From a bacterium (GTDB taxonomy: Bacteria > Acidobacteriota > Terriglobia > Terriglobales > Acidobacteriaceae), in assembly GCA_026225095.1 (NCBI GenBank), contig JAMFSC010000078.1, forward strand, positions 1 to 55,054: 55,054 nucleotides of DNA. The letters are read 5' to 3'. Below the pieces are notes generated by a model. That model searched no databases. It was not told where the DNA came from and worked only from the letters and a program-made list of their open reading frames with translations. The translations under genes and the position numbers were made by a program. Shown one piece after another: positions 12,004 through 54,568 of this stretch. Position 1 is the first letter of the stretch. Each line of letters starts with the position of its first letter.

Positions 12004-12043
12004 TTGTCTCGGATTGCTTTTGAACAACGGTGAAGGAGTATCT

Positions 12044-25902: not shown

Positions 25903-25920
25903 TAGCGTGGAGGGGAGAGT

Positions 25921-30440: not shown

Positions 30441-30544
30441 TGCTTCAACTCCCTGGGTGAGTGGCTGGAGGCGAGCGAGCGCTGTGGTGAACAAGCTCTG
30501 AGTTTCGATGGCCGGTTCCGATCGGCGTCTAACCGCCTTCGCAA

Positions 30545-32963: not shown

Positions 32964-35900
32964 GTGCAATTTTCGTCGAAGAGGACTTTAGGCCGGTTGG
33001 TCGTGTTGGTCGTGGCGCTCGGGGGCCTGATGGCGGTCGCAGGCTGTGGTACGTCGCCCACTCCAGACACATTGACGGCGAGCCCGGCCTTCAAGCCAGG
33101 CGGCGGAACCTATAGCTCTTCGCAGACCGTGACCATCACCGACTCGACGGCCGGCGCGGTCCTCTATTGCACGACCGACGGCACGACGCCCACGACCTCA
33201 TCGCCGCAGTGCAGCCAGCCGACGACCGTCTTCAAGTCGGAGTATCTCCAGGCGATGGCCGTCGCTCCGGGCATGGCGGCCAGTGCGGTTGCATCGGCTG
33301 GTTACACCATCAACCTGGCGGCCACGGCGACTCCGACCTTTTCGATTGGCGGGGGCACCTATACGTCCGCGCAGACGGTGGCGATCAGCGATGCAACCAC
33401 CGGGGCCAACATCTTTTACACCACGGATGGAACCACTCCGACGTCTTCTTCCACCTTGTATTCGGGGCCGATCGCCGTGTCTACGAACGAGACCATCAGC
33501 GCGATCGCGGTGGCGTCGGGATACAACAACAGCGGCGTGGCTGTTGCCTCCTACGCGATCAACCTGGTGATCGCGCCCCCCACGCTCTCGCCCGTGGGTG
33601 GCACGTACACCACCGCGCAGACGGTGACGATCAGCGATGCGACGGCCGGGGTGCAGATCTACTACACCACCAATGGAAGCGCGCCGAGCGCCTCGAACGG
33701 GACCTTGTATACGACCGCGATTCCAGTAGGCGCGACCGCGACGATCCAGGCTGTTGCGGTGTTGAGCGGCCATGCCAACAGCGCGATCGCATCCGCCACC
33801 TACACGCTCAACACGACGCCGCTCGCGACGCCGACGTTCTCGCCTGCGCCAGGGAGCTACAACGCCGCGCAGACGGTGACGCTCAGCGATACCGCTGCCG
33901 GAGTGTCTCTCTTCTACACCATCGACGGAAGTACGCCATCCGCGTCCTCCACACCGTACAACGGTCCCATCAACGTAGCGGCCACGGAGGTGGTCAAGTC
34001 GATTGCGATCTTGAGCGGCTATCCGAACAGCGCGGTGGCATCCGGAACCTACGTTGTTACCACGCCGCTCACCGCCACCCTCACATTTTCTCCCGCGGCG
34101 GGCACCTACCACGCTGTGCAGACGGTGACCATCAGCAACTCGGCATCGGGAGCCTCTATTTACTACACCACCGACGGCACCACGCCGACTGCGTCCTCGA
34201 CGCTGTACAACGGCCCCATCACGGTCTCCGGGAACGAGACGATCCAGGCGGTCGCCGTGGAAAGCGGCTTCACGAATAGCGCCGTTGCCACAGCCGCCTA
34301 TGTGATCAGCCTGAACCCGGCCCCAACGCCCACCTTCTCTCCGGCTCCGGGAACCTATCTGTCCGCGCAGAGCGTGACGATCGGCGACTCCCAGAGCGGC
34401 GCGGTGATCTACTACACCACCGATGGAAGCGCACCGACCACCACCTCCCCGACCTACAGCAGCGCCATCTCCGTGACGGCTGGCGCGACCATCAAAGCCA
34501 TCGCCCTGGCCCCGGGCTTCGACAGCAGCTCGGTAGCGGTCGGAACCTACAACGTTTTCACGAACTCCGCCACACTCACGGGCACCGTTATGACCGGAAC
34601 GAATCCGGTGAGCGGCGCCACGATTCAGCTCTACGCGGCGGGACAGACCGGCTATGGATCAAAGGGCACCGCGCTGATCCCAGTCTCGACGTCCGCGACC
34701 ACCACCAGCAATGGGGGATTCGCCTTCACCTACGGCTGTCCGGCAGCACCCGGCGATCAGATGTACCTGGTCGCGACCGGTGGCGACAGCGGAGCAGGTC
34801 CCAACGCCGGGCTGGCGCTCATGACGGCGCTGGGATCGTGTCACAACTCGAATCTTCCGGCCAGCATCGTGGTGAACGAGGCGACCACGGTGGCTTCGGT
34901 TTACTCGCTGGCGCAGTTCGAGTCGCTGCCGGCTACGGGAAACGGGATTGTGATCGGCACTAGCGCGACCAATGCGATCGGCCTCGCGAACGCGATGAAG
35001 ACGGTTCCCAACCTGGTGGACCTGCCGACCGGAACTGTACTGGCGATTACGCCCTTCTATCAGCGGCTGGGAAGCGCTTCGGGTGGACTTCTCGACAGCA
35101 GCTATGTTCCGCAGGCTCGCATCGATACGCTGGCGAACATGCTGAACGGCTGCGCACACTCCAACGGTGTGGGCTCAGGCTGCAGCAGTCTCTTCAGCGC
35201 TGCGACCATTCCCTCCTCGACCGCGCCCCTCGATACGCTGCAGGCGATGCTGAACATCGCGCAGCATCCTGGAACCAACGCCGCCGGGGTGTACGCGGTG
35301 GCGTCGCCCAGTGGACCCTTTCAGCCCGCGCTGACTTCCTCTCCCAGCGATTGGACGCTCGCCCTGACCTTCCAGGGCGGAGGGCTGGGCACGGTGCCAA
35401 ACGACACTTCGGGGAATGGTGGCGCGGCTGTCCTCGGCCTGGCGATCGACGCGACGGGAAACATCTGGCTTCCCGTGCAAAACTTATGTGCGAACGCGAC
35501 TTTCAACAGCTTTGCGGACGGTGTCGTGAAGTTCGACAACCAGGGCAATGCGGTCTCGCCCGGTCTGGCTTACGACGTCAGCAACAATTGCACAGGAGGG
35601 TTCCAGCCGACCTTCAATGGAACCCCGGTACTGTCCTCAGGGTTTGCGTCTGCGGTGACCGTGGATCTTGAAGGATCCATCTGGTTGCCAGCACCATCTG
35701 CCCTGGTCAAGATGTCCCAGGACGGAACCGTGCACCAGGGTGCCTATGGAGCTCCGCTATGTAGCAGCTTCAATACTTTGGAGGTCGATGGGGCCGACGG
35801 GGTCTGGTACAGCTGTTCGGGAGGAATTGGCGCCAATCTGGCGACCGATGGCTCATTCATTGCAGACCAGTACAAAGACGGCACAACCGTAATTGACAGC

Positions 35901-36641
35901 ATCGGCGGTATGACTCTGGATCCCGTCGGCCATCTCTGGGCGGTAACGACCCCGCATGGTAGCAGCGATTCCAACATCTCCGAGTTTGGAATCCTGGGGG
36001 TTTCTTCCACCAATCCTACCAATCCTCCCGTGGTGACCAACGACATCGCCAACACCGGCCCTGGTATGTTCTCGTCAACCGATTTGCTTGCCGATGGGGC
36101 GATGAACATCTTCGCTCCTAATCCGACGCCTGGCACGATCAGTGTTCTGGACTCAACCTCCAGTCTCACTGCCCTGACGTACCCACTTCCGACCGGCGCT
36201 TACGGCGTGACGCGGCTTGCGCTCGACGGAGCCGGAAATCTCTGGGGCGCCGCCTTCTCGGGGCAGGTCGGTGTCTTCACCGGCACCACAGTCCCCTCCT
36301 ACCTGGTGGAGATGACCAGCCCAAATCCCATCACCAGCTCCCCCGGGGGGACGATCCTCTCGCCGTCGGATTCGAGTGCGAACGTCTACGGCTACACCGG
36401 GACCGGCGGGGGCGGAGAGACGCAACCGATCCTGGCAAACGTCGGCGTGTCCAATGCGTTTCAAGGCATCGCCGTGGACGGCTCCGGGAATGTCTGGGTT
36501 GCGAATTCGAACGTTGCCGATCCCTCTTTCGCGGGGGTTCCGGCGGGACAGCAGTTGGTGGAGTTTATCGGACTCGCGGCTCCCGTGGCAACGCCTACCG
36601 CGCTCGCGCTCAAGAACAACACGCTTGGAGTCCGACCGTAG
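32964..36641 (+). CDS. Large lipoprotein: chitobiase-C-like repeats, shared module, NHL-type propeller
   Basis: A 1225-residue lipoprotein with GTG start. The lipobox is MAVAGC (Cys28). Six CHB_HEX_C_1-like Ig repeats occupy about 40-530, each with GGTY.SAQTV.I.D...GA.I.YTTDG..PT and (E)TI.A.AV..G. The conserved module (about 536-790) starts LTGTVMTGTNPVSGATIQLYAAG and continues FAFTYGC, QMYLVATGGDSGAG, LMTALGSC and VVNEATTVASVYSL. The C-terminal third is an NHL/Vgb-type propeller (GLAIDATGNIWLPV, VTVDLEGSIWLP, IAVDGSGNVWVAN). The tail is VEFIGLAAPVATPTALAL...RP. It lies ahead of the sigma/anti-sigma pair; the same module recurs in the lipoproteins at 39317 and 43330. Confidence 0.86.
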   Translation: MQFSSKRTLGRLVVLVVALGGLMAVAGCGTSPTPDTLTASPAFKPGGGTYSSSQTVTITDSTAGAVLYCTTDGTTPTTSSPQCSQPTTVFKSEYLQAMAVAPGMAASAVASAGYTINLAATATPTFSIGGGTYTSAQTVAISDATTGANIFYTTDGTTPTSSSTLYSGPIAVSTNETISAIAVASGYNNSGVAVASYAINLVIAPPTLSPVGGTYTTAQTVTISDATAGVQIYYTTNGSAPSASNGTLYTTAIPVGATATIQAVAVLSGHANSAIASATYTLNTTPLATPTFSPAPGSYNAAQTVTLSDTAAGVSLFYTIDGSTPSASSTPYNGPINVAATEVVKSIAILSGYPNSAVASGTYVVTTPLTATLTFSPAAGTYHAVQTVTISNSASGASIYYTTDGTTPTASSTLYNGPITVSGNETIQAVAVESGFTNSAVATAAYVISLNPAPTPTFSPAPGTYLSAQSVTIGDSQSGAVIYYTTDGSAPTTTSPTYSSAISVTAGATIKAIALAPGFDSSSVAVGTYNVFTNSATLTGTVMTGTNPVSGATIQLYAAGQTGYGSKGTALIPVSTSATTTSNGGFAFTYGCPAAPGDQMYLVATGGDSGAGPNAGLALMTALGSCHNSNLPASIVVNEATTVASVYSLAQFESLPATGNGIVIGTSATNAIGLANAMKTVPNLVDLPTGTVLAITPFYQRLGSASGGLLDSSYVPQARIDTLANMLNGCAHSNGVGSGCSSLFSAATIPSSTAPLDTLQAMLNIAQHPGTNAAGVYAVASPSGPFQPALTSSPSDWTLALTFQGGGLGTVPNDTSGNGGAAVLGLAIDATGNIWLPVQNLCANATFNSFADGVVKFDNQGNAVSPGLAYDVSNNCTGGFQPTFNGTPVLSSGFASAVTVDLEGSIWLPAPSALVKMSQDGTVHQGAYGAPLCSSFNTLEVDGADGVWYSCSGGIGANLATDGSFIADQYKDGTTVIDSIGGMTLDPVGHLWAVTTPHGSSDSNISEFGILGVSSTNPTNPPVVTNDIANTGPGMFSSTDLLADGAMNIFAPNPTPGTISVLDSTSSLTALTYPLPTGAYGVTRLALDGAGNLWGAAFSGQVGVFTGTTVPSYLVEMTSPNPITSSPGGTILSPSDSSANVYGYTGTGGGGETQPILANVGVSNAFQGIAVDGSGNVWVANSNVADPSFAGVPAGQQLVEFIGLAAPVATPTALALKNNTLGVRP

Positions 36642-36845
36642 GCCAAGAGAAATTCATCGGAAAACACAGGAGAAATCACTTGAGCGTCGCAGTCTCTTTC
36701 CATACTTGGTGCGCAAGCCCAGATCAGCCTTTGCAGCCCGTCCATCCCCAAAGTCTTCATGGACAGGAGCCAGGAAGGCGAGACGACAGCCTTCTCCGGG
36801 CGAACGCGAGACAGCGACTGGCTTCACAGCAGAGGAGTGGCCAAG

Positions 36846-37505
36846 ATGGGTATCTCGCACAAGGTGGCGCCGGCAGTGGATGGCGAACTTCGTTTCAATC
36901 GGGCTCAACTGCCCGCGTTTGGATCGGACGATCGAAAGCTAAGCCTCATCGGACGGCTGAATGGAGCGGGAAAAGAAGGGAAGATCGATCAGCAAAGATT
37001 GAGTGTTGAGCTGGGAGAACGGATTCTCGCACTCTACGACGAATTCAGACCACGGCTCTTTCGCTACATCCGCAGCATGAATCTGAACCGGGACCAGGCA
37101 GAAGAGGTCATCCAGGAGACCTTCATGCGGCTGACCATTCGGCTCCTGAAAGATGACGACATTGACAACGTACAAGGATGGATCGTTCGAGTTGCCCACA
37201 ACTTCGCAGTCGATCTGCACAAGAAAAAACTCCGGGAGCCATCCGGAACCTCTGACCTCAGCTTCGCCGTGGAGAACCGCATCGACCCTACTCCCAATCC
37301 AGAAGAGACCTATTCAAGGAAGGAGCAGATCAGGCGCATGGAGGAGGCATTGTCGGCTCTCACTCCACAGCAGCGCCAATGCTTTCAGCTACGAGCTCAC
37401 GGATTTGGCTACAAGGAGATTGGAACGACGTTCGGGATCAGCGAGCAGCGGGCAGCTTTGATCGTAAAACAGGTCTCCGTGCGACTCGCGGCAACCTGCG
37501 GTTAG
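36846..37505 (+). CDS. ECF-type RNA polymerase sigma factor
   Basis: A 219-residue sigma-70-family protein. ATG at 36846 is preferred over ATG 36759 because a GAGGAG site sits 8 nt upstream; an N-terminal tail of about 55 residues remains. Region 2 (about 62-130) has LFRYIRSMNLNRDQAEEVIQ and ETFMRL, WIVRVAHN and AVDL; region 4 (about 165-215) has SALTPQQRQCFQLR and a helix-turn-helix GYKEIGTTFGISEQR. The following gene encodes a ZAS-type anti-sigma protein, so the pair is probably a signal-released switch for this envelope locus. The promoter recognised is not known. Confidence 0.92.
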   Translation: MGISHKVAPAVDGELRFNRAQLPAFGSDDRKLSLIGRLNGAGKEGKIDQQRLSVELGERILALYDEFRPRLFRYIRSMNLNRDQAEEVIQETFMRLTIRLLKDDDIDNVQGWIVRVAHNFAVDLHKKKLREPSGTSDLSFAVENRIDPTPNPEETYSRKEQIRRMEEALSALTPQQRQCFQLRAHGFGYKEIGTTFGISEQRAALIVKQVSVRLAATCG

Positions 37506-37539
37506 AAGATCCCCGGTTACAAGAAACAAGATTGAGACT

Positions 37540-39315
37540 ATGAATCGATTTCTGAGACATCTCGTTTCCATGCAGGACGACCACCTCTCCGACGAGCGCA
37601 TGGTGAGTCTGCTCTGCCATGAGTTGTCGTATCCGAAGAGGTGGATCGCCGAGCGTCATCTGGCCAGATGCTGGCGCTGCAGGGTTCGCAAGGAAGATCT
37701 GGAAGGATATCGCGCAGACCGGATGATCCGCCTCTATCGCGAAGCCCTGGAGAACGGAGAGCTGTCGCTCCCCGATGCTCCGCGCACGGAGTTTCTGCTG
37801 CGCCTCGATGCCCGGATTCACCAGGCTCCGACGCTCCGGCGAGGCTACCTCTCCGGGCTGCACCTCACCCGCACTCAGATTCAGCAACTCAGCCCCGTGT
37901 TCGCCACATGCCTGTTGCTTAGTGTTGCCGCTGCGCCCGTCCTCTTCTCCCGCAGCCGGATCCGCGTTCCGGAGATCGACTCCAGCACGTTACTGGTTCG
38001 AGCCGAGAGGTGGGAAGGACCCGATCCCGGCGTCCCTGGTGGAGTCATCGTTCAGGCCATCCGGATCACAGCTCCCCATCAGATCCTGGAGCGATCCATC
38101 TACCGCGACGTGCTGAGAAGACGGTCCGCGCGAGCCGTCAAGCTGGACGCCGGACAAGATCATCTGCGAACCCGGCTGGCTCATGCGGGAATCGACTGGG
38201 ATGAACCCATCTCCGCATCCGGATATAGGGGATGGCACGACCGGCAACCCATGCGTGAGGACAAGATCGTTCGCGCCGCCGGCCACCTTCTCAAACTTAC
38301 GACCTCGGTGCCTGGGGGATCTATCTCAGAACAATCTCTCACCGTGCGCGATACCGACTTCCATCCCGTGCGTCGCACCGTCGTCTTTCGGGATAGTGAA
38401 ACCGTGGAGGTTGCCGAACTCGACTTCAAGATTCTCCCCTGGAGCCAGGTCGATACAAACCTGTTCGAGAGCGCGGGAGTCTCCGAGTCCGCGGCCCCCA
38501 CGTCTCTCGCTCGCGCGCTGCCTCTACCGCACATCCCGGAGGTGCTGGGCGAGACGCAGCTTGAGGAGACAGAACTCGGCGCAAGACTCATCCTGAATCA
38601 GCTCCACGCAGATACAGGCGAGCAGATCGAGATCACCCGGCTGCCCCGTGGAGTCGAGGTGAAAGGGCTGGTCCAGACGGAGGAGCGGAAGCAGGAGCTG
38701 CAGCGCCAGTTGCACATCGTGCCTCATCTCACGGTCGCGATCAAGAGCGTCGCAGAGCTGAAGGATGACCCTCTCTCGGGCGTGGCCGCGAACGACGCAG
38801 GAGATGCGTTGCTGCCGGACCAGTCGTCTCCGCTCGAATCGTATCTGCGGGCCCACGGACGGAGCATCGTCGTCATCAATGTCCTCGCACGGCGACTTTT
38901 CAACGATGCTCTGACGATCAGCCAGGAGAGTAAGGCGATCGAAGATCTGCAGACCCGCTTCGCCTCTGGAGAACAGAGGAGTGTCGTCGCGTCGGCGACT
39001 CTGCTGGAGCTGATCTATAGCCACCGCGAACGGTTGGAAGCCGCGCTCGGCCAAGAACGCGAACACTTGGGGGAGGCACAGAGCACCGCGGGGTTCGACG
39101 ATTCTCGCCCCGATCCAACCTCGCGCCTCCACGATGCGGCGAGCAGGAATCTCGCACTTTGCAAGGAACTCACGGAGACCGATGGTTCCGCGACGCAGAG
39201 CGCGGATCAGATCCTCCGCGATATGTCACTCCAGGTGAAATACCTCGCCAGCGGCCTGCGCGACACCTACGTCAGGTCTCGTCTGAGCGACTCACCCCTG
39301 AAAGAAAAGAGATAG
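37540..39315 (+). CDS. Membrane anti-sigma factor-like protein with ZAS motif and large outer domain
   Basis: A 591-residue protein starting 35 nt after the sigma gene. The N-terminal cytoplasmic part has a ZAS-type zinc motif H40-x3-C44-x2-C47 (HLARCWRC), with H15 25 residues earlier as the likely fourth ligand. A single transmembrane segment (about 117-136) follows and then an extracytoplasmic region of about 450 residues, rich in charged residues with helical tails. No catalytic domain is recognised. The outer region is far larger than in typical short anti-sigma proteins, so it may sense envelope partners directly, such as the lipoproteins or porin encoded beside it. The next gene starts 1 nt after its stop. 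Confidence 0.85.
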   Translation: MNRFLRHLVSMQDDHLSDERMVSLLCHELSYPKRWIAERHLARCWRCRVRKEDLEGYRADRMIRLYREALENGELSLPDAPRTEFLLRLDARIHQAPTLRRGYLSGLHLTRTQIQQLSPVFATCLLLSVAAAPVLFSRSRIRVPEIDSSTLLVRAERWEGPDPGVPGGVIVQAIRITAPHQILERSIYRDVLRRRSARAVKLDAGQDHLRTRLAHAGIDWDEPISASGYRGWHDRQPMREDKIVRAAGHLLKLTTSVPGGSISEQSLTVRDTDFHPVRRTVVFRDSETVEVAELDFKILPWSQVDTNLFESAGVSESAAPTSLARALPLPHIPEVLGETQLEETELGARLILNQLHADTGEQIEITRLPRGVEVKGLVQTEERKQELQRQLHIVPHLTVAIKSVAELKDDPLSGVAANDAGDALLPDQSSPLESYLRAHGRSIVVINVLARRLFNDALTISQESKAIEDLQTRFASGEQRSVVASATLLELIYSHRERLEAALGQEREHLGEAQSTAGFDDSRPDPTSRLHDAASRNLALCKELTETDGSATQSADQILRDMSLQVKYLASGLRDTYVRSRLSDSPLKEKR

Positions 39316-39316
39316 G

Positions 39317-42300
39317 ATGCATCCGCCAATGCCAGGCTTCACTCGCAAGCTAGCCAATCACCTGGCGCGCACGGTCCGCGATTCGCGGCAAAGTCCATTG
39401 TCCGCGGAGTCGATCCTCATCACCGCCGCATCCATCGCTCTGCTGCTGATGCTCTTCGGCTGCGGCAGCGGATCCAGCCTTGTCACAACCGCAGGCCCCA
39501 TCACCATCGCGAACGGCAGCGGCGTCACCGCCAGGGTTACCTCACTCAACGTGGCTGCCACCGCGCAGCTCAGCATGATGCCCATCGGCGATACCGTCAA
39601 CGCCGGGGTCGACTGGACGGTGATGTGCGGCGGCAACCCGGTCACAGGCAGCGTCGTGAACGGAGCATGCGGCACCTTCACTCCGTCCCACACCGCCGAT
39701 GGAGCGGCAACGCTCTTCACCGCGCCGGCAATGGTCCCGATTGGAACCACCATCACCATCACGGCCTCGGTTACCAGCAATCCGTCACAGTCCACGACCA
39801 CCAGCCTCACCATCGTCTCTCTGCCGATCGCCGTAGCCTTTTACAGTCCCCCGCTAAGTTCCCTCCTGATCAACGGGGGCTCCGGATTCACTGTCGACGT
39901 AACGAATGACCCCACAACCGCGGGCGTCATCTGGTCAGCCAGCTGCGGAGCGGCCGCCTGTGGTGCCTTCACCCCGGTGACTTCGCCGGCGTCGAACCGC
40001 CTCTCATCCACGTTCTATATCGCCCCATCGGTGGTGCCTCCTGGCGGCACAGTAACCATCACCGCCACCTCTCTCACGGACACGACGAAATCCATCAGCG
40101 CAACCATCCCGATCCTCGCGCCCACGGTCCCTCCTGCTCCTCCGCCCATCGCCATCAGCCTCTCTCCGGCAACGCTGTACGCGCAGACCACTGGCGCGGC
40201 GCGCACGCTCCATTTCATCGCCAACGTGACGAACGACGCGGCGACAGCAGGCGTGAACTGGAAGGTCGGCTGTGGCGGAACAACCTGCGGACAGATCACA
40301 TCCCATACCGCCAGCGGAGCGCAGGCCACCTTTGTCGGTCCCACCACCGTTCCTCCGGGCGGAGCCGTCACCATCACCGCCACCTCGGCCACGGATCCGA
40401 CACAGTCCGCCACCGCGGTCGTAACCGTCATCACCACTGCTCCTATCGTGGTGACCCTGTCCTCGAGTTCAGCGCTCCCGGCTTCTCTGACCGCGGGATC
40501 GCAAGCCACGCTCGCCGCCACGGTAGCATCCGACCCGGGAACCCTGGGTGTGAACTGGATCGCCACCTGTGGCAGCGCGGGAGCCTGTGGGAGCTTCAAC
40601 CTCTCTCCCGCCCATACCGCCAGCGGGGGGCAGATCATCTACACTGCTCCCGCCGCGATTCCCACCGGTGGCGTCGTGACCATCACCGCATCCTCGCCGG
40701 CCACGACCCCCTCGAACCCGGCCTCGGCCAGGACTACCATCACCGCTCAACCGCCATCCGTCTCCTTCCTGCAATCCCCTCCTGCAACCCTGACCAGCAC
40801 GGCCAAGATGTCCGTAAGCGCCATCGTTGCCAATGACGTCGCACCCGGAGGAGTCACCTGGACGGTACAGTGCGCGAGCACCATCGACGGAGCATGCGGC
40901 TGGATTACACCGGCACAGACCGCCAGCGGAGCGACTGCGACCTACACCGCACCGCCCGTCACCTCCGGCGGAACGTTAGTCACTATCCTCGCGACCTCGA
41001 CAGCCGCGCCTCAGGTCAATGTGAAGTCCTCTCCTATCGCGATCAAACCATCCACAAACCTGACCGTCAGCTTTGTTCCCACGCCTCCATCGCAGGTTCA
41101 GGCAAACTCCACGGTAAGCCTTGCCGCAGCCGTCGCGAATGATACGAGTAACGCCGGGGTCGACTGGCAGGTCTGCGCCAGCGGCTGCGGATTCTTTACG
41201 ACGCAGGCTGCGATCCCCGCGATTCCCGCAACTCAAACCACGCCCTACGTCCCTCCGGTGGCGGCTATCACGTCCACTCAGGTCTCGGCGTGGCCCAACA
41301 ACCTGCCGCTCCCATACACCGCTCCCTTGCAGGCTCCCGGCTCTGGCTCTGTGGTTCTGCTGGTCGCCTCCCATGCGGATCCAACCGCGGCCAACTCCGC
41401 GACCGTCACGATCATCACGACGTCGAACGGACCGGCGCTTCACGGCACGGTGCTTGCCGGAGTCCAGCCAGTCGTAGGCGCATCGGTCGCCCTTTACGCG
41501 GCCGGGACGACCGGTTACGGTTCGCTGGCTGCGCAGGTCTACGCACCCGGGGGCACCGCGACAACCCTGACCGACAGTAGCGGAGGCTTTGTGGTTCCCG
41601 GCGGATATAACTGCCCGAGCCCCGGAAGCCAGATGTACCTGGTGGCTACAGGAGGCGGCGTCGATGCCAAAGCCCCAAACCCCAATCTCGCTCTCATGAC
41701 TGCCCTCGGAAGCTGCAGCAGCCTCAGCTCTACCACCGTCGTGCTGAATGAGATCACCACCGTGGCCAGCGCCTTCGCTACCGCGCCCTTCGCCTCCAAC
41801 GAACCCCTCACAGGCAACAGCAGCTATCTGTACCTCGGCACCAGCAGCACCAACAGCACAGGTCTGGCCAACGCCTTCGCAACCGTCAACAACCTCGTCG
41901 ATGTCACTACCGGGCAGGCTCGGTTCGCGGTTCCATCCGGCAACGCCGCAGCGCCGTACGTCAAGATCGACACGCTGGCCGATATCCTGAACGCCTGCAC
42001 AGCCACCTCGGGCGGTGTCTACGGAGACGGAAGCTCGTGCGGCACGCTCTTCACCGCCGCCGCAGTCCTGGGGAATGGCAATGGCGCGGGCTACAACGAG
42101 TTTGTACCGGCCGATACCCTGCAGGCGATCTTCAACATCGCCCAGCATCCGGTGACCGGATATGGCTATCAGTTAGACCCCGCTCCCCTCCATTTTATGG
42201 GCCTCGTCTCGTCAACCTCCCCATTTCAGCCGACCGTCAGCCAGCAGCCGAACGACTGGTCTCTCTCGCTGAACTACACCAATGGCGGTGGGCTCTCTCC

Positions 42301-43267: not shown

Positions 43268-43329
43268 GACATCCAGTACAGGATCCATGCCCTGTCCGGG
43301 CCTGCCGGCGCCACGTAGCCAATCAAGCG

Positions 43330-45465: not shown

Positions 45466-45532
45466 GCGGCCCGATTTGTCTTGTGAACCACTCATGCTTG
45501 CGCTGACCAGATACGAACCGAGGAGAATACCG

Positions 45533-47440: not shown

Positions 47441-47458
47441 CAGGCAACCGCGCGAGCG

Positions 47459-50400
47459 ATGCAATCCAGGCAACAAGGAGTGATGGTGGCCATCTTTCGA
47501 AACGTATCCCGACTACTCCACACGTTGCTCCTCATCGTGTCCATGGGCAGCCTTGCGCTCGTCGCCCAGAACGCAAGCGGGCGTCTATCGGGTCTGGTCT
47601 CCGATCGGGATGGTGCCGTCATCCCCGGCGCTTCCATCCAGGTCGTCAACCAGGAGACGCTGGTCCAGCGCGAGACAAAGACAGACGGCGCGGGATCCTA
47701 CTCCGTTCCGTCTCTTCCGCCGGGACGCTACCAGATCATCGTGGAGGCCGACGGATTCAGCCGCCGATCAAGCGCAGTCATCACGCTCACAGCGGGGCAA
47801 ACCCTCGTCTTCAACGCCGTCATGTCAGCCGGAGGCGTGCAGGCGGAGATCAACGTCAACGAAGCCGGAGGCACCATCGTAGAAACCGACACGGCCTCCA
47901 TGTCCACCACGCTCGACGGAAAGGAGCTCACCGGGTATGGCCTCAACGGCCGCAACTTCTCGCAGCTCATCACCATGGCCCCGGGCGTCAGCAACCAGAC
48001 CGGGCAGGACGAGGCCAAGGTCGGCGTCGCCGGCAGCGCCAAGTTCAGCGTCAACGGGGGCCGCGTCGAGTACAACACCTTCGAGGTCGATGGCAGCGAC
48101 GTTCTCAACACCAGCATCAATGCCAGCCGCGGGCAGGGCGAACCGCTTATGGTCTATCCCAGCATCGACGCCATTCAGGACATGAAGGTCATCACCGCCA
48201 ACTACAGCGCGCTCTACGGCAAGAGTGCGTCCGGAAGCGTCCTCGTGACCACCAAGTCCGGAACCGATCAGTTCCACGGCAACGTCTACGGCTTCCTCCG
48301 CAACGAGAAGTTCAACGCGAGGAACTACTTCGATCAACCCGAGCCGATTCCTCTCGGGTACACCGGCAAGCGAACCTATCGAACCCCGCTCTATCGCAGG
48401 CTCGACTTCGGCGCGACGCTGGGCGGACCCATCTTCATCCCGCACGTCTACAACAAGAACAAATCCAAAACCTTCTTCTTCTTTTCCGAAGAGATCCGAC
48501 GCGAGAAGACCCCGGTGGACTACAACCAGGCCGTCCCCACCATGGCAGAGCGTCAAGGAAACTTCTCCGACGTCTGTCCCGCCCCTGTACCTGGCGGTTC
48601 CCCTTATTTCAATCCTGCCAACTACCCAGATTGCCCCAAAGGCTCAGCCCCCGGCAGCGGTAATACCTCCTACACCATCGGCAATCGGGTCGACATCGAC
48701 TCGATCTCATCCGCTCTCCTGAACAACGGCACCATCCCGTTGCCGAACTCTTCCACCGGCTGCAACTCGACCAACCCCAGCCCGCTTCTCCACTGCTACA
48801 CCGCCTCCGTCTCTCCCCCGACTCACTGGCGCGAAGAGCTGTTCCGCATCGACCACAACCTCACCGCGAACAATCGCCTCTCCTTCCGCTACATCCACGA
48901 CTCCTGGGACACGGTCACGCTCACTCCCCAGTGGGGTATCGTGCAGAACAGCTTCCCCACGGTCGAGAATCGCCTCAACGGCCCCGGGTTGAACATGGTC
49001 TTCAGCCTCGCGCAGACCCTTCCGCACGAGTTCGTCAACCTCATCTCCTTCAGCTACGAGGTCGAACACATCTCCCTTGTCCCTCAGCCGGGCGTCGGCG
49101 CGTCGTCCATCACTCGCCCCGGAGCGCTCGACGACCAGGGCCCTTCGACCACAGGGGGAGCCGCTATCTCGGGAGCGGCACAGTGCTCCCATCTGACCGG
49201 CAACAGCGCGAACGGCTCCACATATGCCTTCGACGAGTGCCCCGCCGGATATATCTTCGACAACGGCTTCGGAGCCAATAAGATGCCGGGCCTTGTCTTT
49301 CAGGGATCGAACGGAGCCTACGGCGGCCACGGGTTCGCCGCGGACACAGGCTATGCCCCGTGGAACCAGGCCAACCCAACCTACATCCTCCGCGACGACA
49401 TCGCAAAGACCATCGGCCGTCACACCCTGCAGTTCGGCTTTGAGGGAACCTACGTCCAGCAGAACGAGCTGAGCGCAGTCAGCGGAGCCAACTCCGGCGA
49501 TCTCCAGGGTCTCCTGACCTTCAGCAACCAGCAGTCGATCTACACCACCGGCAACGCCTTCGCCGACTTCCTCGCCGGCCAGGGTAACAGCGGAGTCCAC
49601 GGAGGCATCAAGAGCTTCACCCAGGACAGTGCCCAGTCAAAGTACTACAACCGCTACAAACTCGGCGATCTCTACCTCCAGGATGACTGGCACGCCCTCC
49701 CCGGGTTAACCATCAACGCCGGGCTGCGCGTTAGTCTCTTCGGCCCCTGGTACAACTCAAAAAACACCGCGTATAACTGGCGCCCGGAAGCATACGACGC
49801 ATCGGTGGGCAGCTCGTTTTACGTCGATTCCAACAATGGCTTCCTGGTGAGCAACGCGACCGGCGCACCGGTGAAGCTCGATCCCGGCAATCCCGGGGCC
49901 GTCATCCGAAACGGGCTGATGCAGTGCGGCGCCAACGGCGTGTCCACAAGCTGCATGACCAACTCGCTCTTCCATCCAGCTCCCCGCGTCGGAATCTCGT
50001 GGGATCCACGCAGAGACGGCAAGACCTCCATCCGCGCAGGCTACGGCCTCTTCTGGGAGCATGGGACGGGCTACGAAGCTAACTCAGGCTCGCTTATCGG
50101 AAGCGCGCCGCTCGTCCTCAGCGAGACCCAGTCCAACATCCATTCAACCGCGGGAAGCAACTACGGCACCATCGGGTTCTCCTGCCAGGACGGCACAACG
50201 CAGTGCGGCAAGTTCGTGCCTCCCCCCGGCGGCACCACCTATCCTCTCAACGTCACCTCCATCCCCACCAAAACCATCTACTCCTACGTTCAGCAGTGGA
50301 GCCTGAGCATGGAACACCAGGTCGGCAAGAACATGGTGGGACAACTCGCCTATGTCGGATCAAAGGGAACTCATCTCACCGCCGTGCGCGACCTTAATCA

Positions 50401-51592
50401 ACTCGCGCCCCTCGGCAACGGGCTGAACCCCTTCGCTCCGGGCCAGCCCATCACCTCCGATGTCTGCACCAGCGGCGCACAGTTTGGCTACTTCTCGGTT
50501 GCGGGGATCAATCCGCAGAACACCAACCTCATCGCGTCCTCCTCTGCCATCGGACCCAGGAGCCCAGGCTATCGCAACATGTTCGTAGCCTGCAGCGGCG
50601 ACTCCGGCTTTCAGAACGGCAGCGTGCAGCTGGGACTCAGCCCGGATTCCATCAGGCCCTACCCAGGCTTCAGCAACATCATCTCGGTCGATAACATCGC
50701 CGACTCAGAGTACAACGCGCTGCAGGGAACCCTGCGCCAGACCGTCGGAGCCCTCACCGTGGGGCTTGCCTACACCTACAGCCACTCCCTCGACGACTCC
50801 TCCGACCGCAGCTCCGCAAACTTCGCCAACTCGCTCGACATCCACTCCAACCACGCCAGCTCCGACTTCGATCAACGCCACATCCTCAACGTCAACTACA
50901 TCTACGATCTTCCATTGGTCAAGCTCCTCCAGGGCTTCACGCACATCGTCGGAAGCGGAGGCGATTCGGCCAGCGACTCCCCCTGGATCGCCGGTCCGAT
51001 GGTCAGGACCTGGCTCGGCGGTTGGCAGCTCAGCGGCATCACCACCTTTCAGACCGGAACGCCCTTCAGCGTCATCAACGGCGGCGGCTCCGACGGAACC
51101 GGCGCCGCCGACAACGCAGGTGTCGGCGACGGACTCGGAATCGGCTCCTACGCCGATATCGCCGGCGACGCCAAAACGGGCAAGCCCTATGTCGCGCAGG
51201 GTGGCAACAACGTCGGCCCTCTGCTGCTCAATCCCGGAGCCTTCACTGCGCCGCGTGGTCTCACCTTCGGCAACTCCGGCCGCAACTATCTCAATAACCC
51301 CTCCCGCACCAACTTCAACATGTCACTCTTCAAACACTTCAAGCCATTCACCGAGCATCTCGATATCGAGTTCCGCGCAGAGGCCTATAACGTCTTCAAC
51401 CACACCCAGTTCCGCATCACCGATCCAGCCAATCCAGGCAACACCGGAAACAACGTGATCAACTGCTACGGCACCCAGACCCAGCTCTACTCCGCCGGGG
51501 CCTCAGCCTGCCTGTCAGGAAACTCCTTCCTCCATCCGGTGGACGCCCATGATCCGCGCATCCTGCAGTTCGGACTTAAAGCTCAGTTTTGA
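47459..51592 (+). CDS. Oar-like TonB-dependent receptor
   Basis: A 1377-residue receptor. The start is not settled: ATG 47459 has a weak site, whereas AAGGAG at 47475-47480 would favour ATG 47483 or GTG 47486 (8 or 9 residues shorter). Signal peptide, then a carboxypeptidase-regulatory-like domain (about 40-125, GRLSGLVSDRDGAVIPGAS), plug (about 135-260, with LNGRNFSQLITMAPGVSNQ, FSVNGGRVEYNTFEVDGSDV, YGKSASGSVLVTTKSGT), and a long barrel ending GLKAQF. QRHILNVNYIYDLP and EFRAEAYNVFNHTQFRI are typical late motifs. It sits 18 nt after the porin-like gene, so both are probably co-transcribed and serve the same substrate. Confidence 0.94.
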   Translation: MQSRQQGVMVAIFRNVSRLLHTLLLIVSMGSLALVAQNASGRLSGLVSDRDGAVIPGASIQVVNQETLVQRETKTDGAGSYSVPSLPPGRYQIIVEADGFSRRSSAVITLTAGQTLVFNAVMSAGGVQAEINVNEAGGTIVETDTASMSTTLDGKELTGYGLNGRNFSQLITMAPGVSNQTGQDEAKVGVAGSAKFSVNGGRVEYNTFEVDGSDVLNTSINASRGQGEPLMVYPSIDAIQDMKVITANYSALYGKSASGSVLVTTKSGTDQFHGNVYGFLRNEKFNARNYFDQPEPIPLGYTGKRTYRTPLYRRLDFGATLGGPIFIPHVYNKNKSKTFFFFSEEIRREKTPVDYNQAVPTMAERQGNFSDVCPAPVPGGSPYFNPANYPDCPKGSAPGSGNTSYTIGNRVDIDSISSALLNNGTIPLPNSSTGCNSTNPSPLLHCYTASVSPPTHWREELFRIDHNLTANNRLSFRYIHDSWDTVTLTPQWGIVQNSFPTVENRLNGPGLNMVFSLAQTLPHEFVNLISFSYEVEHISLVPQPGVGASSITRPGALDDQGPSTTGGAAISGAAQCSHLTGNSANGSTYAFDECPAGYIFDNGFGANKMPGLVFQGSNGAYGGHGFAADTGYAPWNQANPTYILRDDIAKTIGRHTLQFGFEGTYVQQNELSAVSGANSGDLQGLLTFSNQQSIYTTGNAFADFLAGQGNSGVHGGIKSFTQDSAQSKYYNRYKLGDLYLQDDWHALPGLTINAGLRVSLFGPWYNSKNTAYNWRPEAYDASVGSSFYVDSNNGFLVSNATGAPVKLDPGNPGAVIRNGLMQCGANGVSTSCMTNSLFHPAPRVGISWDPRRDGKTSIRAGYGLFWEHGTGYEANSGSLIGSAPLVLSETQSNIHSTAGSNYGTIGFSCQDGTTQCGKFVPPPGGTTYPLNVTSIPTKTIYSYVQQWSLSMEHQVGKNMVGQLAYVGSKGTHLTAVRDLNQLAPLGNGLNPFAPGQPITSDVCTSGAQFGYFSVAGINPQNTNLIASSSAIGPRSPGYRNMFVACSGDSGFQNGSVQLGLSPDSIRPYPGFSNIISVDNIADSEYNALQGTLRQTVGALTVGLAYTYSHSLDDSSDRSSANFANSLDIHSNHASSDFDQRHILNVNYIYDLPLVKLLQGFTHIVGSGGDSASDSPWIAGPMVRTWLGGWQLSGITTFQTGTPFSVINGGGSDGTGAADNAGVGDGLGIGSYADIAGDAKTGKPYVAQGGNNVGPLLLNPGAFTAPRGLTFGNSGRNYLNNPSRTNFNMSLFKHFKPFTEHLDIEFRAEAYNVFNHTQFRITDPANPGNTGNNVINCYGTQTQLYSAGASACLSGNSFLHPVDAHDPRILQFGLKAQF

Positions 51593-51674
51593 GTGTGCGT
51601 GTCGCCATCTACAAACCCCAGCCCGGAGGAGTCAGGTCCGTCCGCTTCCTTTGACCATCAGGAGAGATAGCTCT

Positions 51675-53105
51675 ATGCCGTGCATCCCCAGGAGATACGT
51701 CGCACCGCCATCGCCGTTCGAGATGAAACGCTCCTTTGCCGGTCTCCTTCTGCTCGTCCTCGCCGGTGGATGCGGAGGCAGTACACCCCCGACGCTCGTC
51801 GCTACCACCCATGCAGGCCCCCAGACCTACTTCTCGCCCCTGGTGGAGGGCTCAACCGTGGCGGGGGGAGTGGCGGGGGTCAACGTCACCTACACCATCG
51901 ACGACGTCGGAGATGCATTCTCTCTCAGTACCTTCGCGCTCAACTCCAATCAAAAAGGATTTCAGGTAGCCGACGCCGGCTTCATCGCACCTGGCGCACG
52001 TGGCCTGCTCGAACTGGGCCTCTTGGCCAGCTACCAATTCAACTCTTCCGGCCAATCTGTTGCCACAACCTATACGCGTCAGCAAAACCAGCCTGGGGGC
52101 TTCGCCCTGGAGCTTGCCAACCAGGCAGGGGGGCTCGCGCAGTTTGTGGGTGAGCCGGTCACACCCCTCGTTCCCACCACCTCCGAGTGCCCATCCATCG
52201 GCACGGCGAAGACCTATCTCTTCGTTACCATTCCCGGCGCTCTGCGTAACTCAAACGCCACCGTCCTGCCCCTGACTTGGGATCCACTCAAAGAGACCGC
52301 CTATGGAAGTGTCGACATCAGCACCGACGGAAGCACGGTCAAACTTGCGAACATCAAGCACTCCCTGCTCCCCTCCTCGGGTGGGTCCCTCCAGCCCGCC
52401 AATCCCACCTCCGTCGCCGGGGCCTGCGGCCAGAGCATCTATGGCAATACCATCAGTATCCCGGGGGAGGTTAGCGTGTTGAACCCCGGCCAGGGCCAAA
52501 CCAATCCAACCCAGGCGATCGCCGGCATCAGCCCCTCAGGGCTGCTGGTCGAGGATAACGGAACCCACTTAGCCTCGACAGGCCTCTCCCTCGATTACCT
52601 GAGCGCCCTCGGCGCAGGCACTGGAGCGATCGGTCTGCCCAGGCCCTCCACCGCGCTCGATCTCACCGCCCTCACCGGCGCCCAGTACATGGGCTTCATC
52701 TACGGAGCGGGCACCAGTGGCGCCAATACCAGCACACCCACAGGCTGGTCTTCCCATCTCGCCTCCTTCGGAGGATTCTCCAGCGTGCCCTCCACGTGTC
52801 CCGCCGGCACAAGCAACCCGATCTACGGCGGAAGCTTCACCGGCGACGATCCCTCCACCTCCTCGAACGGCTTCGGCCTCTGCAACGTCACCATCGAACT
52901 CGGTGCGCAGGACCCCAGCAATCCGGGCCTCTTTCCCACCGCGAGAGTCTCGATCGGGGCCACCTACGTCGCCAATACCACCAGGGCCACCGACTCCTTC
53001 TCTGCCGTCGCCATCGCCGGTCAGCTCAACGGCAAGTTCGCAATCTTCGTACTCGGTGTCGATTCCACACAGCCCTGGGAGATCGATCTCCTCCAGTCCA
53101 ACTGA
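51675..53105 (+). CDS. Lipoprotein of unknown function
   Basis: A 476-residue lipoprotein. ATG at 51675 is chosen because AGGAGA lies 9 nt upstream; a start at 51723 (MKRSF) would give a shorter but still valid signal. The lipobox is LVLAGGC (Cys33). The mature part is beta-rich, low in charge, with segments such as VNVTYTIDDVGDAFSLSTFA, TYLFVTIPGALRNSNATVLP and AQYMGFIYGAG. It carries several Cys that could pair. I do not recognise a family. It comes 82 nt after the receptor and may be its surface partner (in the position of SusD-like proteins, though with no SusD features). Confidence 0.8.
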   Translation: MPCIPRRYVAPPSPFEMKRSFAGLLLLVLAGGCGGSTPPTLVATTHAGPQTYFSPLVEGSTVAGGVAGVNVTYTIDDVGDAFSLSTFALNSNQKGFQVADAGFIAPGARGLLELGLLASYQFNSSGQSVATTYTRQQNQPGGFALELANQAGGLAQFVGEPVTPLVPTTSECPSIGTAKTYLFVTIPGALRNSNATVLPLTWDPLKETAYGSVDISTDGSTVKLANIKHSLLPSSGGSLQPANPTSVAGACGQSIYGNTISIPGEVSVLNPGQGQTNPTQAIAGISPSGLLVEDNGTHLASTGLSLDYLSALGAGTGAIGLPRPSTALDLTALTGAQYMGFIYGAGTSGANTSTPTGWSSHLASFGGFSSVPSTCPAGTSNPIYGGSFTGDDPSTSSNGFGLCNVTIELGAQDPSNPGLFPTARVSIGATYVANTTRATDSFSAVAIAGQLNGKFAIFVLGVDSTQPWEIDLLQSN

Positions 53106-53453
53106 CTCCCAACTAACTCATGTCCGGCGCGATTTCACTCTGTGAATCCTCCGTTGAACTTCGGTAAATCCTCAGCCTCCGTGGTTGGGATTGCTGACAA
53201 CCGGCAGTTAACACAGGTAGAAGTCCAGCAAAAACACGAAGACCAGGCGGGGTCTTATCCTCCACTCCCGGTGCCTCCAAACCGGATCTGGGTAGGCCCT
53301 GCGCCGCTTGTGGTCTTCACCACGATCTTCGTCCGTTGAACGCCGCAGTTGCCTTCGGCCTTCTCGAGCCTTCCCAAGCTGCACGTCGAGCGCCCTCTCT
53401 ACCCCGACATGGCGCACGGTGTGCCAAACCAAGCAGAACCAGGAGATCTCCTC
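53106..53453. other. 348-bp spacer without a gene
   Basis: No open frame here is convincing. It separates the lipoprotein at 51675 from the propeller gene. A ribosome-binding site AGGAGA (53441-53446) near its end serves the gene at 53454. No clear terminator hairpin was found. Confidence 0.45.
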
Positions 53454-54446
53454 ATGCTGAGCCAGGTATCGAAGCTTTCCACCGTCATGGCAGCTGCTGT
53501 CATGATCTCGCTCGCCGCGAACGCCCAGACCGTCACCAAAACGATCGCTCTGCCCAACCAGAACTTCGGCGCCATCGCCGCCAACTCCGTCACCAACCGC
53601 ATCTACGCGGTCTCGCCCTCTGGCTCCACGGCGGACGATACAATCTCGGTCATCGACGGCAAGAGCGACAGCATCCTCACCAATATCTCGGTCCCCGCGG
53701 GTGCCTACTATCCCGCCGTCAACATCCTGACGAATAAGGTCTACGTCGCAAGCTGCAATACGCTCGTCGCACCCAGCCCCTGCTTCGTCACGGTTATCGA
53801 CGGCAAGACGAACAAGGTCACCGCAAGCGTTCCGGTTACGACTATCCTGAATGGGTTCTTGGCTGGCATCACGGTGAACCCCGTCACCAACAAGATCTAC
53901 GTCTCCGACAACACCGACGAGCAGATCGTGATCATCGACGGCGCCACCAACGCCGTAACCGGCACCATCAACCTCGGTGTCGCCCCCTGGGGACTGGCCA
54001 TCAATCCCATCAACAACAAGCTCTACGTCACATACGGTGCAAGCGAGATCGACATCATCGACGCCGCCAGCAAGAACATCGTACAGGCCTCGACCGGCGA
54101 AGGCACCGTCGACTACAACGTCGCCGTAGACCTGTTGACTGGCCACGTGTTTGTACCCAACACGAACTTCGGACCATCGACCACGGCGATCCTCAGCTGT
54201 GACGGCAAAATTCTCGCCCAGGTGCCGGTCGGACAGGCCGCATACGGAGTCGATGTCGATCCCATCAAGAACCTGGCCTTTGTCGCAGATATCTCCGACG
54301 GCAACACCAGCGTCATCAATGGAAAAAACGACACCCTCAAGTCGACCATCGCAGGCACCTCTGCCACCTTCATTGCGGTCAACCTGGTCACCGAAAAGGT
54401 CTATGCGATCGGCGGAAACGGTGTCGTCACCGTCTCCAAAGAGTAG
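53454..54446 (+). CDS. Secreted YVTN-type beta-propeller protein
   Basis: A 330-residue protein. ATG at 53454 is supported by AGGAGA 7 nt upstream; an upstream in-frame start would place a proline-rich leader before the signal. Signal peptide (about 1-25, AANAQ). Blade repeats read AIAANSVTNRIYAVSPSG, ISVIDGKSDSILTNI, AVNILTNKVYVAS, ITVNPVTNKIYVSDN, LAINPINNKLYVTYG, VAVDLLTGHVFVPN, VDVDPIKNLAFVAD and VNLVTEKVYAIGG. It belongs to the same class as the genes at 3806 and 16454. A strong hairpin follows, so it ends the locus. Confidence 0.88.
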   Translation: MLSQVSKLSTVMAAAVMISLAANAQTVTKTIALPNQNFGAIAANSVTNRIYAVSPSGSTADDTISVIDGKSDSILTNISVPAGAYYPAVNILTNKVYVASCNTLVAPSPCFVTVIDGKTNKVTASVPVTTILNGFLAGITVNPVTNKIYVSDNTDEQIVIIDGATNAVTGTINLGVAPWGLAINPINNKLYVTYGASEIDIIDAASKNIVQASTGEGTVDYNVAVDLLTGHVFVPNTNFGPSTTAILSCDGKILAQVPVGQAAYGVDVDPIKNLAFVADISDGNTSVINGKNDTLKSTIAGTSATFIAVNLVTEKVYAIGGNGVVTVSKE

Positions 54447-54531
54447 GAAGCCAGGCCATCGACAGCGAATCGCCGTATGACGCGCATCTCGACCAGCGGT
54501 TGGTAAGAACGAGTGCAGAACATTCTTGAGA

Positions 54532-54568
54532 AGAGAGATGCCTTCGCGAAAAGGGAAGGCATCTCTCT
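54532..54568 (+). terminator. 14-bp hairpin ending the surface-protein locus
   Basis: AGAGAGATGCCTTC (54532-54545) pairs perfectly with 54555-54568 around a 9-nt loop. It begins 86 nt after the propeller stop. The T-run afterwards is weak (TATGCTCC), so termination strength is uncertain; it may work in both directions. Confidence 0.7.

What the first reader, a model, noticed from the sequence alone, without database searches (positions are those of the whole stretch)
32964..54446. Possible undescribed sigma/anti-sigma-controlled envelope system
A continuous plus-strand run codes for a large lipoprotein, ECF sigma factor, ZAS anti-sigma with a very large outer domain, two further large lipoproteins, a coiled-coil porin, a TonB receptor, a lipoprotein and a propeller. 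Junctions are tight: 1 nt after the anti-sigma gene and 18 nt before the receptor. Three lipoproteins share one module but carry different stalks. This gene set does not match a Sus/PUL system (no SusD, no glycosidase) or a known Fec-type switch.
Basis: partly seen in the sequence, partly recalled or inferred. Interest (0 to 1): 0.85.

Follow-up and report, generated by a model that had tools for sequence, protein, structure and literature searches.

The report
Receptor-linked sigma switch in soil bacteria
A group of neighbouring genes in soil bacteria of the phylum Acidobacteriota joins an outer-membrane transport channel to a membrane-spanning gene switch with an unusual sensor; the same arrangement recurs in relatives, which makes a possible new way of controlling such channels testable.

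Summary
The gene run is real: LP1, ECF sigma, anti-sigma, LP2, LP3, porin-like POR, TonB-dependent receptor (TBDT), LP4, propeller. It is conserved: I count 16 distinct arrays in Acidobacteriaceae/Acidobacteriales, window included, 15 with the anti-sigma gene; named hosts are Granulicella, Paracidobacterium and Silvibacterium. The anti-sigma is a zinc-motif (ZAS) domain, a transmembrane helix, a LolA/RseB-like domain, a BON-like domain and a helical bundle. The sensor adjoins a TBDT in 45 of 46 distinct ORFs scanned. In 19 of 48 family members sigma and anti-sigma are one chain. Genes near other sensor-TBDT pairs include GH20, S46, S9 and phosphodiesterase enzymes. A promoter-like element precedes LP1 in 10 of 11 arrays with LP1 next to sigma. 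A divergent hydrolase-like/faintly PstS-like pair travels with 13 of 16 arrays. Best reading: a TBDT-coupled trans-envelope sigma switch that works like Fec-type cell-surface signalling. It lacks two Fec hallmarks (STN in the window receptor, FecR in 32 anti-sigmas), so it is a new variant. Function is inferred; nothing was tested at the bench.

The parts
29418..30494 (-). DIV2: alpha/beta-hydrolase-like protein, divergent to the array
   Evidence: Profile A5 hits PDB hydrolases (best E 6.6e-5); homologues near 13 of 16 arrays
30628..32418 (-). DIV1: protein with a faint PstS-like (phosphate-binding) stretch
   Evidence: Travels with DIV2 (alignment); PstS-like PDB hit only at E 0.54; no Pfam hit in the window protein
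32818..32846 (+). Promoter-like element GTTGAG-N17-GTCATT upstream of LP1
   Evidence: At the orthologous place in 10 of 11 arrays with LP1 next to sigma; the eleventh has only a 14-bit version; sites of 18 bits or more: 17 real vs 0-4 in ten shuffles
32964..36641 (+). LP1: lipoprotein, six CHB_HEX_C_1/Fn3_assoc repeats, shared module, weak propeller signal at the C-terminus (GTG start)
36759..37505 (+). SIG: ECF sigma factor (5' end unsure)
   Evidence: Sigma70_r2 E 1.1e-9, Sigma70_r4_2 4.5e-8; TIGR02937 8.6e-22
37540..39315 (+). ANTI: ZAS motif H40 C44 C47, TM ~117-140, LolA/RseB-like 145-317, BON-like 334-412, helical bundle ~440-590
   Evidence: H/C/C invariant in 32 of 32 aligned and present in 47 of 48 members scanned; ChrR PDB hit E 0.012; AlphaFold2 pLDDT 81.9; RseB Z 10.7, LolA Z 12.4, BonA Z 7.9
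39317..43267 (+). LP2: lipoprotein, Ig-like stalk, shared module, propeller-like region (Reg_prop just over its cut-off)
   Evidence: 45-60% identical in the arrays
43264..45465 (+). LP3: lipoprotein, LP2-type stalk + shared module (start 43264 or 43348); in some arrays BLAST matches only its first ~270 residues
45533..47440 (+). POR: coiled-coil N-terminus, then a region that looks porin-like by eye
   Evidence: Only weak coiled-coil or chance hits in Pfam, NCBIfam and the PDB; BLAST identity 61-76% across arrays
47459..51592 (+). TBDT: CarboxypepD_reg + Plug + OMP_b-brl_4, no STN hit ('Oar-type' is my recalled label)
51675..53105 (+). LP4: lipoprotein following the TBDT; all-beta model
   Evidence: Cys invariant in 13 of 13; TbpB-class structures lead a weak fold search
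53454..54446 (+). PROP: YncE/YVTN-type propeller, variably placed near arrays
   Evidence: TIGR02276 7.9e-14

Best explanation
This is one cassette of a family of TBDT-coupled trans-envelope sigma switches in Acidobacteriota. The ECF sigma is held at the inner membrane by a ZAS anti-sigma. The anti-sigma's periplasmic part (LolA/RseB-like pocket, BON-like domain, helical bundle) reads the state of the neighbouring TBDT, or a ligand or lipoprotein delivered through it. Signal then leads to release of sigma, probably by regulated proteolysis, and sigma raises expression of the array: POR, TBDT and LP4 for capture and transport, the large lipoproteins as surface presentation or adhesion parts, DIV1/DIV2 as binding and hydrolytic partners. 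Shown by computation: gene order, conservation, predicted domain folds, sensor-TBDT linkage, natural sigma/anti-sigma fusions, the conserved element upstream of LP1. Inferred: direction of transport, the ligand, proteolysis, roles of the lipoproteins, and that the element is this sigma's target.
For: Sensor-TBDT linkage: of 46 distinct sensor ORFs scanned, 43 have a TBDT downstream on the same strand (38 directly, 5 across LP2-LP3-POR); in two more (L110, where it is in pieces, and L119) a TBDT lies just upstream of the sigma gene; one contig ends. The window and L036, not in that scan, also have it. The TBDT profile was trained on 23 of the first loci; in the 16 later-fetched loci 13 of 17 sensor ORFs show one downstream (one of the other four is a cut duplicate). 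By contrast the window's genome has 69 OMP_b-brl_4 matches, some split over one gene, and one sensor. Fusion: 19 of 48 members are single sigma-ZAS-TM-sensor chains, a natural sign of partnership; a fused CSS sigma/anti-sigma (IutY) is known (passages of PMC8999054). Nearby enzymes at other sensor-TBDT pairs: GH20, S46, S9, phosphodiesterase. Structure. Array conservation. Promoter-like element.
Against: No experiment. Sensor-TBDT co-divergence within genomes was not significant (r 0.53; 1014 of 5000 permutations as high). The promoter-like pattern is at control level in the whole own genome (14 vs 13), and no shared dyad stood out upstream of the fused or other split genes. One array (G131) lacks the anti-sigma gene but keeps sigma and the rest, so the switch is not strictly needed. 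The sensor is patchy: 21 of 200 family genomes and 16 of 396 phylum genomes, the window's own included (lower bounds, as at most six candidates per genome were scored). Of ten neighbouring proteins put to Pfam, one gave nothing, one POR homologue gave nothing, and one is a TPR/redoxin protein that does not point to uptake. The model's pTM is 0.47, so the domain arrangement is unsure.
Confidence: 0.6

Rival explanations
1. Lipoprotein/OMP-traffic checkpoint: the LolA/RseB-like domain of ANTI binds lipoproteins of the array (or LPS) that pile up in the periplasm; this frees sigma and raises the outer-membrane machinery, with the TBDT serving export as Oar does for PopC.
For: LolA, RseB and MucB are the closest folds of the sensor; four lipoproteins lie in the array; five fused-type loci carry a 1395-2072-aa ORF after LP4, the one tested being Ig-like/NHL; the TBDT Oar is required for secretion of protease PopC (start of abstract and passages of PMC6434023).
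Against: Several sensor-TBDT loci have enzymes, not large surface proteins, after the TBDT; no ligand data.
Confidence: 0.2
2. Ordinary envelope-stress sigma/anti-sigma pair that merely lies beside surface genes.
For: RseB-like sensor fold; sigma hits are generic ECF models.
Against: Sensor and TBDT are neighbours in 45 of 46 distinct scanned ORFs, the last ending at a contig edge; the array order is kept across genera.
Confidence: 0.1
3. Classical Fec-type cell-surface signalling whose STN and FecR domains have diverged beyond recognition.
For: Same logic: ECF sigma, membrane anti-sigma, TBDT; a BON-like domain could play the part of the STN-like domain of FecR-type proteins (inference).
Against: No STN in the window TBDT at E <= 0.1; no FecR among 32 relatives at E <= 0.05; the sensor fold is LolA/RseB-like, whereas FoxR/PupR are described as a beta-solenoid-like subdomain plus STN-like domain (passages of PMC11637429).
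Confidence: 0.07

Closest known systems
Fec/Fox-type cell-surface signalling (FecI-FecR-FecA; FoxI-FoxR-FoxA)
   Same: ECF sigma + membrane anti-sigma + TonB-dependent receptor encoded together; transport control is likely
   Different: Window TBDT has CarboxypepD_reg instead of STN; anti-sigma is ZAS + LolA/RseB-like + BON-like instead of FecR + STN
IutY of Pseudomonas putida (ECF243, fused sigma/anti-sigma)
   Same: Single-chain sigma/anti-sigma in 19 of 48 family members, next to a TBDT
   Different: The window pair is split; no FecR match; fused and split states interchange in this family
RseA-RseB / MucA-MucB sigma-E control
   Same: LolA-like sensor domain associated with an anti-sigma
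   Different: Here the domain is part of the anti-sigma polypeptide, with a BON-like domain and helical bundle, and linked to TBDTs
SusCD / PUL loci
   Same: TBDT with a carboxypeptidase-like N-terminal domain, followed by a lipoprotein
   Different: No SusD hit; the partner lipoprotein LP4 is modelled as all-beta
TbpA-TbpB and Slam-dependent surface lipoproteins
   Same: TBDT gene followed by an all-beta lipoprotein; TbpB chains lead the LP4 Foldseek list
   Different: Best TbpB Z 7.3, below the guide of 8, with an arabinanase ranked first; after rank 5 Foldseek lists mainly unrelated chains and lipocalins; Slam not found, though that search's control was silent

Membership tests
Fec-type cell-surface signalling | ECF sigma and membrane anti-sigma encoded with a TonB-dependent receptor | tested here: met
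Fec-type cell-surface signalling | STN signalling domain on the receptor | tested here: not met
   Window TBDT only: CarboxypepD_reg + Plug + OMP_b-brl_4, no STN at E <= 0.1; other TBDTs were not run against Pfam
Fec-type cell-surface signalling | FecR-family anti-sigma | tested here: not met
   0 of 32 members match FecR at E <= 0.05
Fec-type cell-surface signalling | Signal-dependent proteolysis releasing sigma | not testable with these tools
   -
ZAS anti-sigma factors | H-x3-C-x2-C motif in an N-terminal cytoplasmic domain | tested here: met
   Invariant in 32 of 32; motif in 47 of 48 members, missing in L108; zf-HC2 in 13 of 32; ChrR PDB E 0.012
RseB/MucB-type sensors | LolA-like periplasmic fold | tested here: met
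   RseB 2p4b Z 10.7 over 146 residues, rmsd 4.2; LolA-like 4mxt Z 12.4 over 148, rmsd 4.9
RseB/MucB-type sensors | Separate periplasmic protein | tested here: not met
   The domain is fused in the anti-sigma chain
BON-domain proteins | BON fold | tested here: inconclusive
   BonA 6v4v Z 7.9 over 74 residues; Pfam BON only E 0.058 and 0.08 in two of six members scanned, none of 32 at E <= 0.05
SusCD/PUL | SusD partner next to the TBDT | tested here: not met
   No SusD hit in the nine array proteins (E <= 0.1, E <= 0.01)
TbpA-TbpB-type co-receptor | TbpB-like fold of the partner lipoprotein | tested here: inconclusive
   Foldseek E 7.5e-4, best TbpB Z 7.3; model pLDDT 70.6
Fused sigma/anti-sigma (IutY-like) | Sigma and anti-sigma in one chain | tested here: not met
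   Split in the window; fused in 19 of 48 members

The most novel reading that the evidence does not exclude
Acidobacteriota use a separate, STN-free class of receptor-to-sigma signalling: a cis-fused LolA/RseB-like + BON sensor on a ZAS anti-sigma (repeatedly fused to or split from its sigma) reads lipid or lipoprotein cargo passing a CarboxypepD_reg-type TBDT, so that surface assembly or import itself switches on the locus. The TBDT is partnered by a TbpB-like lipoprotein instead of SusD.
Probability: 0.25. Interest if true: 0.85.

Novelty: new variant of a known kind. Interest (0 to 1): 0.62.

Why it matters
This genome alone gives 69 matches to the barrel family OMP_b-brl_4, and I found no description of how such receptors are regulated in Acidobacteriota. 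If the reading holds, it defines a signalling route from an outer-membrane receptor to transcription without STN or FecR, shows sigma and anti-sigma fusing and splitting within one family, and gives named strains (Granulicella mallensis X5P3, Paracidobacterium acidisoli 4G-K13, Silvibacterium bohemicum S15) in which receptor-sigma coupling can be tested. My ten paper searches, of which I read listings and, for five papers, passages, showed nothing describing this system; the library holds only openly licensed PMC papers, and the 2021 ECF re-classification paper, recalled, was not held.

Tried and rejected
Intragenomic co-divergence of sensor and TBDT: r 0.53, 1014 of 5000 permutations as high; not evidence. 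The all-pairs correlation (0.57) and nearest-neighbour agreement (22 of 42) are confounded by species history and not used.

Shared promoter for fused or other split loci: no dyad clearly above shuffles; only the LP1-upstream set stood out (5 of 8 loci vs 3-4 in shuffles), and it was then confirmed by alignment. The strict pattern is at control level genome-wide. At 13 bits the matrix gives 49 real sites against 18-30 in three shuffles, so the 14-bit sites are not evidence by themselves.

Module lipoproteins as the system's signature: rejected, since the module is common outside arrays.

Tree labels: one search mislabelled five fused proteins as split; corrected, which alone is used. L054's 873-aa 'fusion' was judged by eye a chance in-frame joining of a sigma reading frame to a split gene and counted as split.

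Solved relatives of the TBDT by sequence: none at E <= 0.01; of POR: only coiled-coil or chance hits. POR has distant homologues on six plasmid records, the five shown being proteobacterial; not pursued. Slam in the own genome: no match, but the control also gave none, so nothing is concluded. DIV1 as PstS: only E 0.54 and no Pfam match of that kind in 9 members; kept as a hint.

Sigma-70 promoter and terminator scans of 36000-55054: not above shuffles.
Full report
WHAT IS THERE. The window is a whole 55,054-base contig (G000:C168) of a 5.1-Mb draft genome. Pfam identifies the sigma (regions 2 and 4), the receptor (CarboxypepD_reg, Plug, OMP_b-brl_4) and LP1's repeats. It gives nothing for ANTI and LP4 at E <= 0.1. 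LP2 has one propeller hit just over its cut-off; LP3, POR and PROP have only sub-threshold hits; PROP matches YVTN repeats in NCBIfam. 'Oar-type' for the receptor is my recalled label for this architecture.

CONSERVATION. A search with ANTI found relatives in 21 of 200 genomes of the family, the window's own included. I fetched 31 stretches around them. Six loci in five genomes carry SIG-ANTI-LP2-LP3-POR-TBDT-LP4 in the same order, four of them with LP1 directly upstream of SIG. A scan of named genome contigs gave 15 loci. Twelve carry SIG-ANTI-LP2-LP3-POR and, except L074 whose contig ends within POR, the TBDT; LP4 lies beyond the stretch held in these. L077 ends after ANTI. L079 and L080 match only from the sensor on (residues 117 and 109) and have a TBDT next, as in the fused type; the ORF is 1016 aa in L080 and 844 aa with a frame break in L079. 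G131 (L144/L145) has sigma, LP2, POR, TBDT, LP4, an LP1-like protein, DIV1 and DIV2, but no ANTI gene: LP2 starts 55 nt after sigma, and the sensor profile finds nothing there even at E 10. LP1 lies directly upstream of SIG in 11 of the 16; in three others an LP1-like gene lies after LP4 (L124, L125, L145).

DIVERGENT PAIR. Left of LP1, on the other strand, lie DIV1 (30628-32418) and DIV2 (29418-30494). Homologues accompany 13 of 16 arrays, in most divergent to LP1 and in L124, L125 and L145 downstream of LP4; also one fused-type locus, L051. In the other three (L035/L068, L074, L075) none was seen in the stretches held, and for L074 and L075 those stop before LP4. DIV2 is alpha/beta-hydrolase-like (best PDB E 6.6e-5); DIV1 has only a faint PstS-like stretch (E 0.54).

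THE SENSOR. In a 32-member alignment H40, C44 and C47 are invariant; over 48 members the motif is present in 47. A profile of seven close members meets the anti-sigma ChrR in the PDB at E 0.012; zf-HC2 matches 13 of 32 and FecR none. AlphaFold2 on that alignment gives pLDDT 81.9 (pTM 0.47, so domain arrangement is uncertain). Residues 145-317 match LolA and RseB/MucB (Foldseek best E 1.1e-5; Z 12.4 for 4mxt, 10.7 for RseB 2p4b). Residues 334-412 match BonA (Z 7.9 over 74 residues; two of six further members hit Pfam BON at E 0.058 and 0.08). Residues ~440-590 form a helical bundle whose matches are not informative. In E. coli and Pseudomonas the RseB/MucB sensor is a separate protein (established knowledge); here it is in the anti-sigma chain.

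LINK TO RECEPTORS. A profile of the sensor domain found 16 of 396 genomes across the phylum, the window's own included, in five families besides the window's (a lower bound, since at most six candidates per genome were scored). In 46 distinct sensor ORFs examined with a TBDT profile, 43 have a TBDT downstream on the same strand: 38 within 225 nt and 5 in arrays across LP2-LP3-POR. In two more a TBDT stands just upstream of the sigma gene (L119 intact; L110 in pieces), and one lies at a contig end (L120). One further ORF in the scan was a cut copy of a counted one and was dropped. The TBDT profile was trained on 23 of the first loci; among the 17 sensor ORFs in the 16 later-fetched loci, 13 have a TBDT downstream. 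The window genome has 69 OMP_b-brl_4 matches (some split over one gene) but a single sensor, so the link is not a by-product of receptors being everywhere.

FUSIONS. Nineteen of 48 members (window included) are single chains of 929-1031 aa with the H-x3-C-x2-C motif, a hydrophobic stretch and the same sensor (19 of 19). Sigma-70 region 2 matches 13 of the 32 first members at E <= 0.05, a count that fits the 12 fused ones plus L054; in the six chains scanned singly E ranges from 0.013 to 6.8e-8, with region 4 weaker or absent. On a tree of the sensor domain the fused and split states need six changes, at least three of them forced by well-supported branches (0 of 500 shuffles as low); the array-type proteins form one group of 7 (99/99) inside a group of 18 (100/99) of which 10 are fused (midpoint root, several long branches). 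Fused sigma/anti-sigma proteins are known: IutY, and predicted ZAS-type fusions in ECF48/52/53 (passages of PMC8999054). What looks new is the sensor and the recurrent switching.

CARGO. Near other sensor-TBDT pairs lie genes for GH20 (L048), peptidase S46 (L058), an S9-type hydrolase (L045; L050 below cut-off), a phosphodiesterase (L052), a DLH/S15-like hydrolase that is the DIV2 homologue (L051), and a giant Ig-like/NHL protein (L041) (ten proteins chosen by eye, of which L053's and the POR homologue of L041 gave no family at E <= 0.001 and L056's is TPR/redoxin). In the closest group an LP4 homologue follows the TBDT in six of ten fused loci; three have none and one is cut. LP4's cysteine is invariant in 13 of 13 aligned. 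Its model (pLDDT 70.6, pTM 0.77) is all-beta. Foldseek's first five hits are TbpB chains (best E 7.5e-4), followed mainly by unrelated chains and lipocalins. In the VIA list 39 of 50 rows are TbpB, LbpB, HpuA, hemophilin/HphA, fHbp or PmSLP, many being repeat entries of the same proteins, with Z of at most 7.3, below the guide of 8, and an arabinanase at rank 1 (Z 7.6). I treat a TbpA-TbpB-like pairing as a lead.

PROMOTER-LIKE ELEMENT. GTTGAG-N16/17-GTCA[CT]T lies upstream of LP1 in 10 of 11 arrays with LP1 next to SIG (one with ATTGAG), and as a 14.1-bit version in Paracidobacterium scaffold3. Eight of these sites trained the matrix; those of G194 and G158 did not. Sites of 18 bits or more in 345 kb: 17 real (8 training sites, one duplicate locus, 8 others) against 0-4 in ten shuffles. 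Of the 8 others two are LP1 sites (G194, G158), four face DIV2 or DIV1 (L066, L067 twice, L122 about 400 nt away), and two (window 14409, L123) have no evident role. Weaker 14-bit sites face DIV1 in G194 and PROP in G158, but at that level shuffles give many (49 real vs 18-30). Genome-wide the strict pattern equals its control (14 vs 13). It may be the cognate sigma's promoter, but this is untested.

MECHANISM. I commit to a TBDT-coupled sigma switch (0.6). The main rival is a lipoprotein-traffic checkpoint with the TBDT as exporter (0.2): the sensor's nearest folds handle lipoproteins, and the TBDT Oar is needed for protein secretion (start of abstract and passages of PMC6434023). Against my reading: no significant intragenomic co-divergence, patchy distribution, the G131 array without ANTI, and no visible wider regulon.

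PLACE AMONG KNOWN SYSTEMS. It works like cell-surface signalling, but two defining domains were tested and not found: STN on the receptor (window TBDT only) and FecR in the anti-sigma (32 members). It is therefore not filed as a member. Current CSS models have the STN domain of the receptor touching the STN-like end of the anti-sigma (passages of PMC11637429); whether the BON-like domain and CarboxypepD_reg take over this contact is an open, testable question.

Noticed in passing
24868-27964: A ParA/MinD-type ATPase (minus) and a sub-threshold RPA-type replication-initiator match (plus; E 0.0054) lie in a stretch of lower GC (0.505-0.532); a plasmid-like or integrated element may abut the array.
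   Followed up: no
L144/L145 (G131): An array with sigma but no anti-sigma gene: a natural knock-out.
   Followed up: partly
36680-37009: A Shine-Dalgarno-like stretch and a TTG start lie just after LP1 but in another frame than sigma; the DNA there is similar in relatives, so the true 5' end of the sigma gene is unsure (possible indel or leader ORF).
   Followed up: partly
29418-30494: DIV2's likely nucleophile elbow reads G-x-G-S-G-G (G-E-N-S-G-A in L125) rather than G-x-S-x-G, so catalysis is uncertain.
   Followed up: no
8630-16340: A second OMP_b-brl_4 receptor followed by an FG-GAP protein (13078-14322) and a PQQ/cytochrome-c protein (14319-16340): another surface locus without the sensor.
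   Followed up: no
18694-23088: 1464-aa minus-strand protein with six TIG stretches and DUF11.
   Followed up: no
54480-55054: The last bases read by eye like the start of a helix-turn-helix transposase, so the contig may break at an insertion sequence.
   Followed up: no
L042 1-7901: In Paracidobacterium acidisoli (G035) the array's TBDT and LP4 are followed directly by a second, fused sigma/anti-sigma gene and the start of its TBDT.
   Followed up: partly
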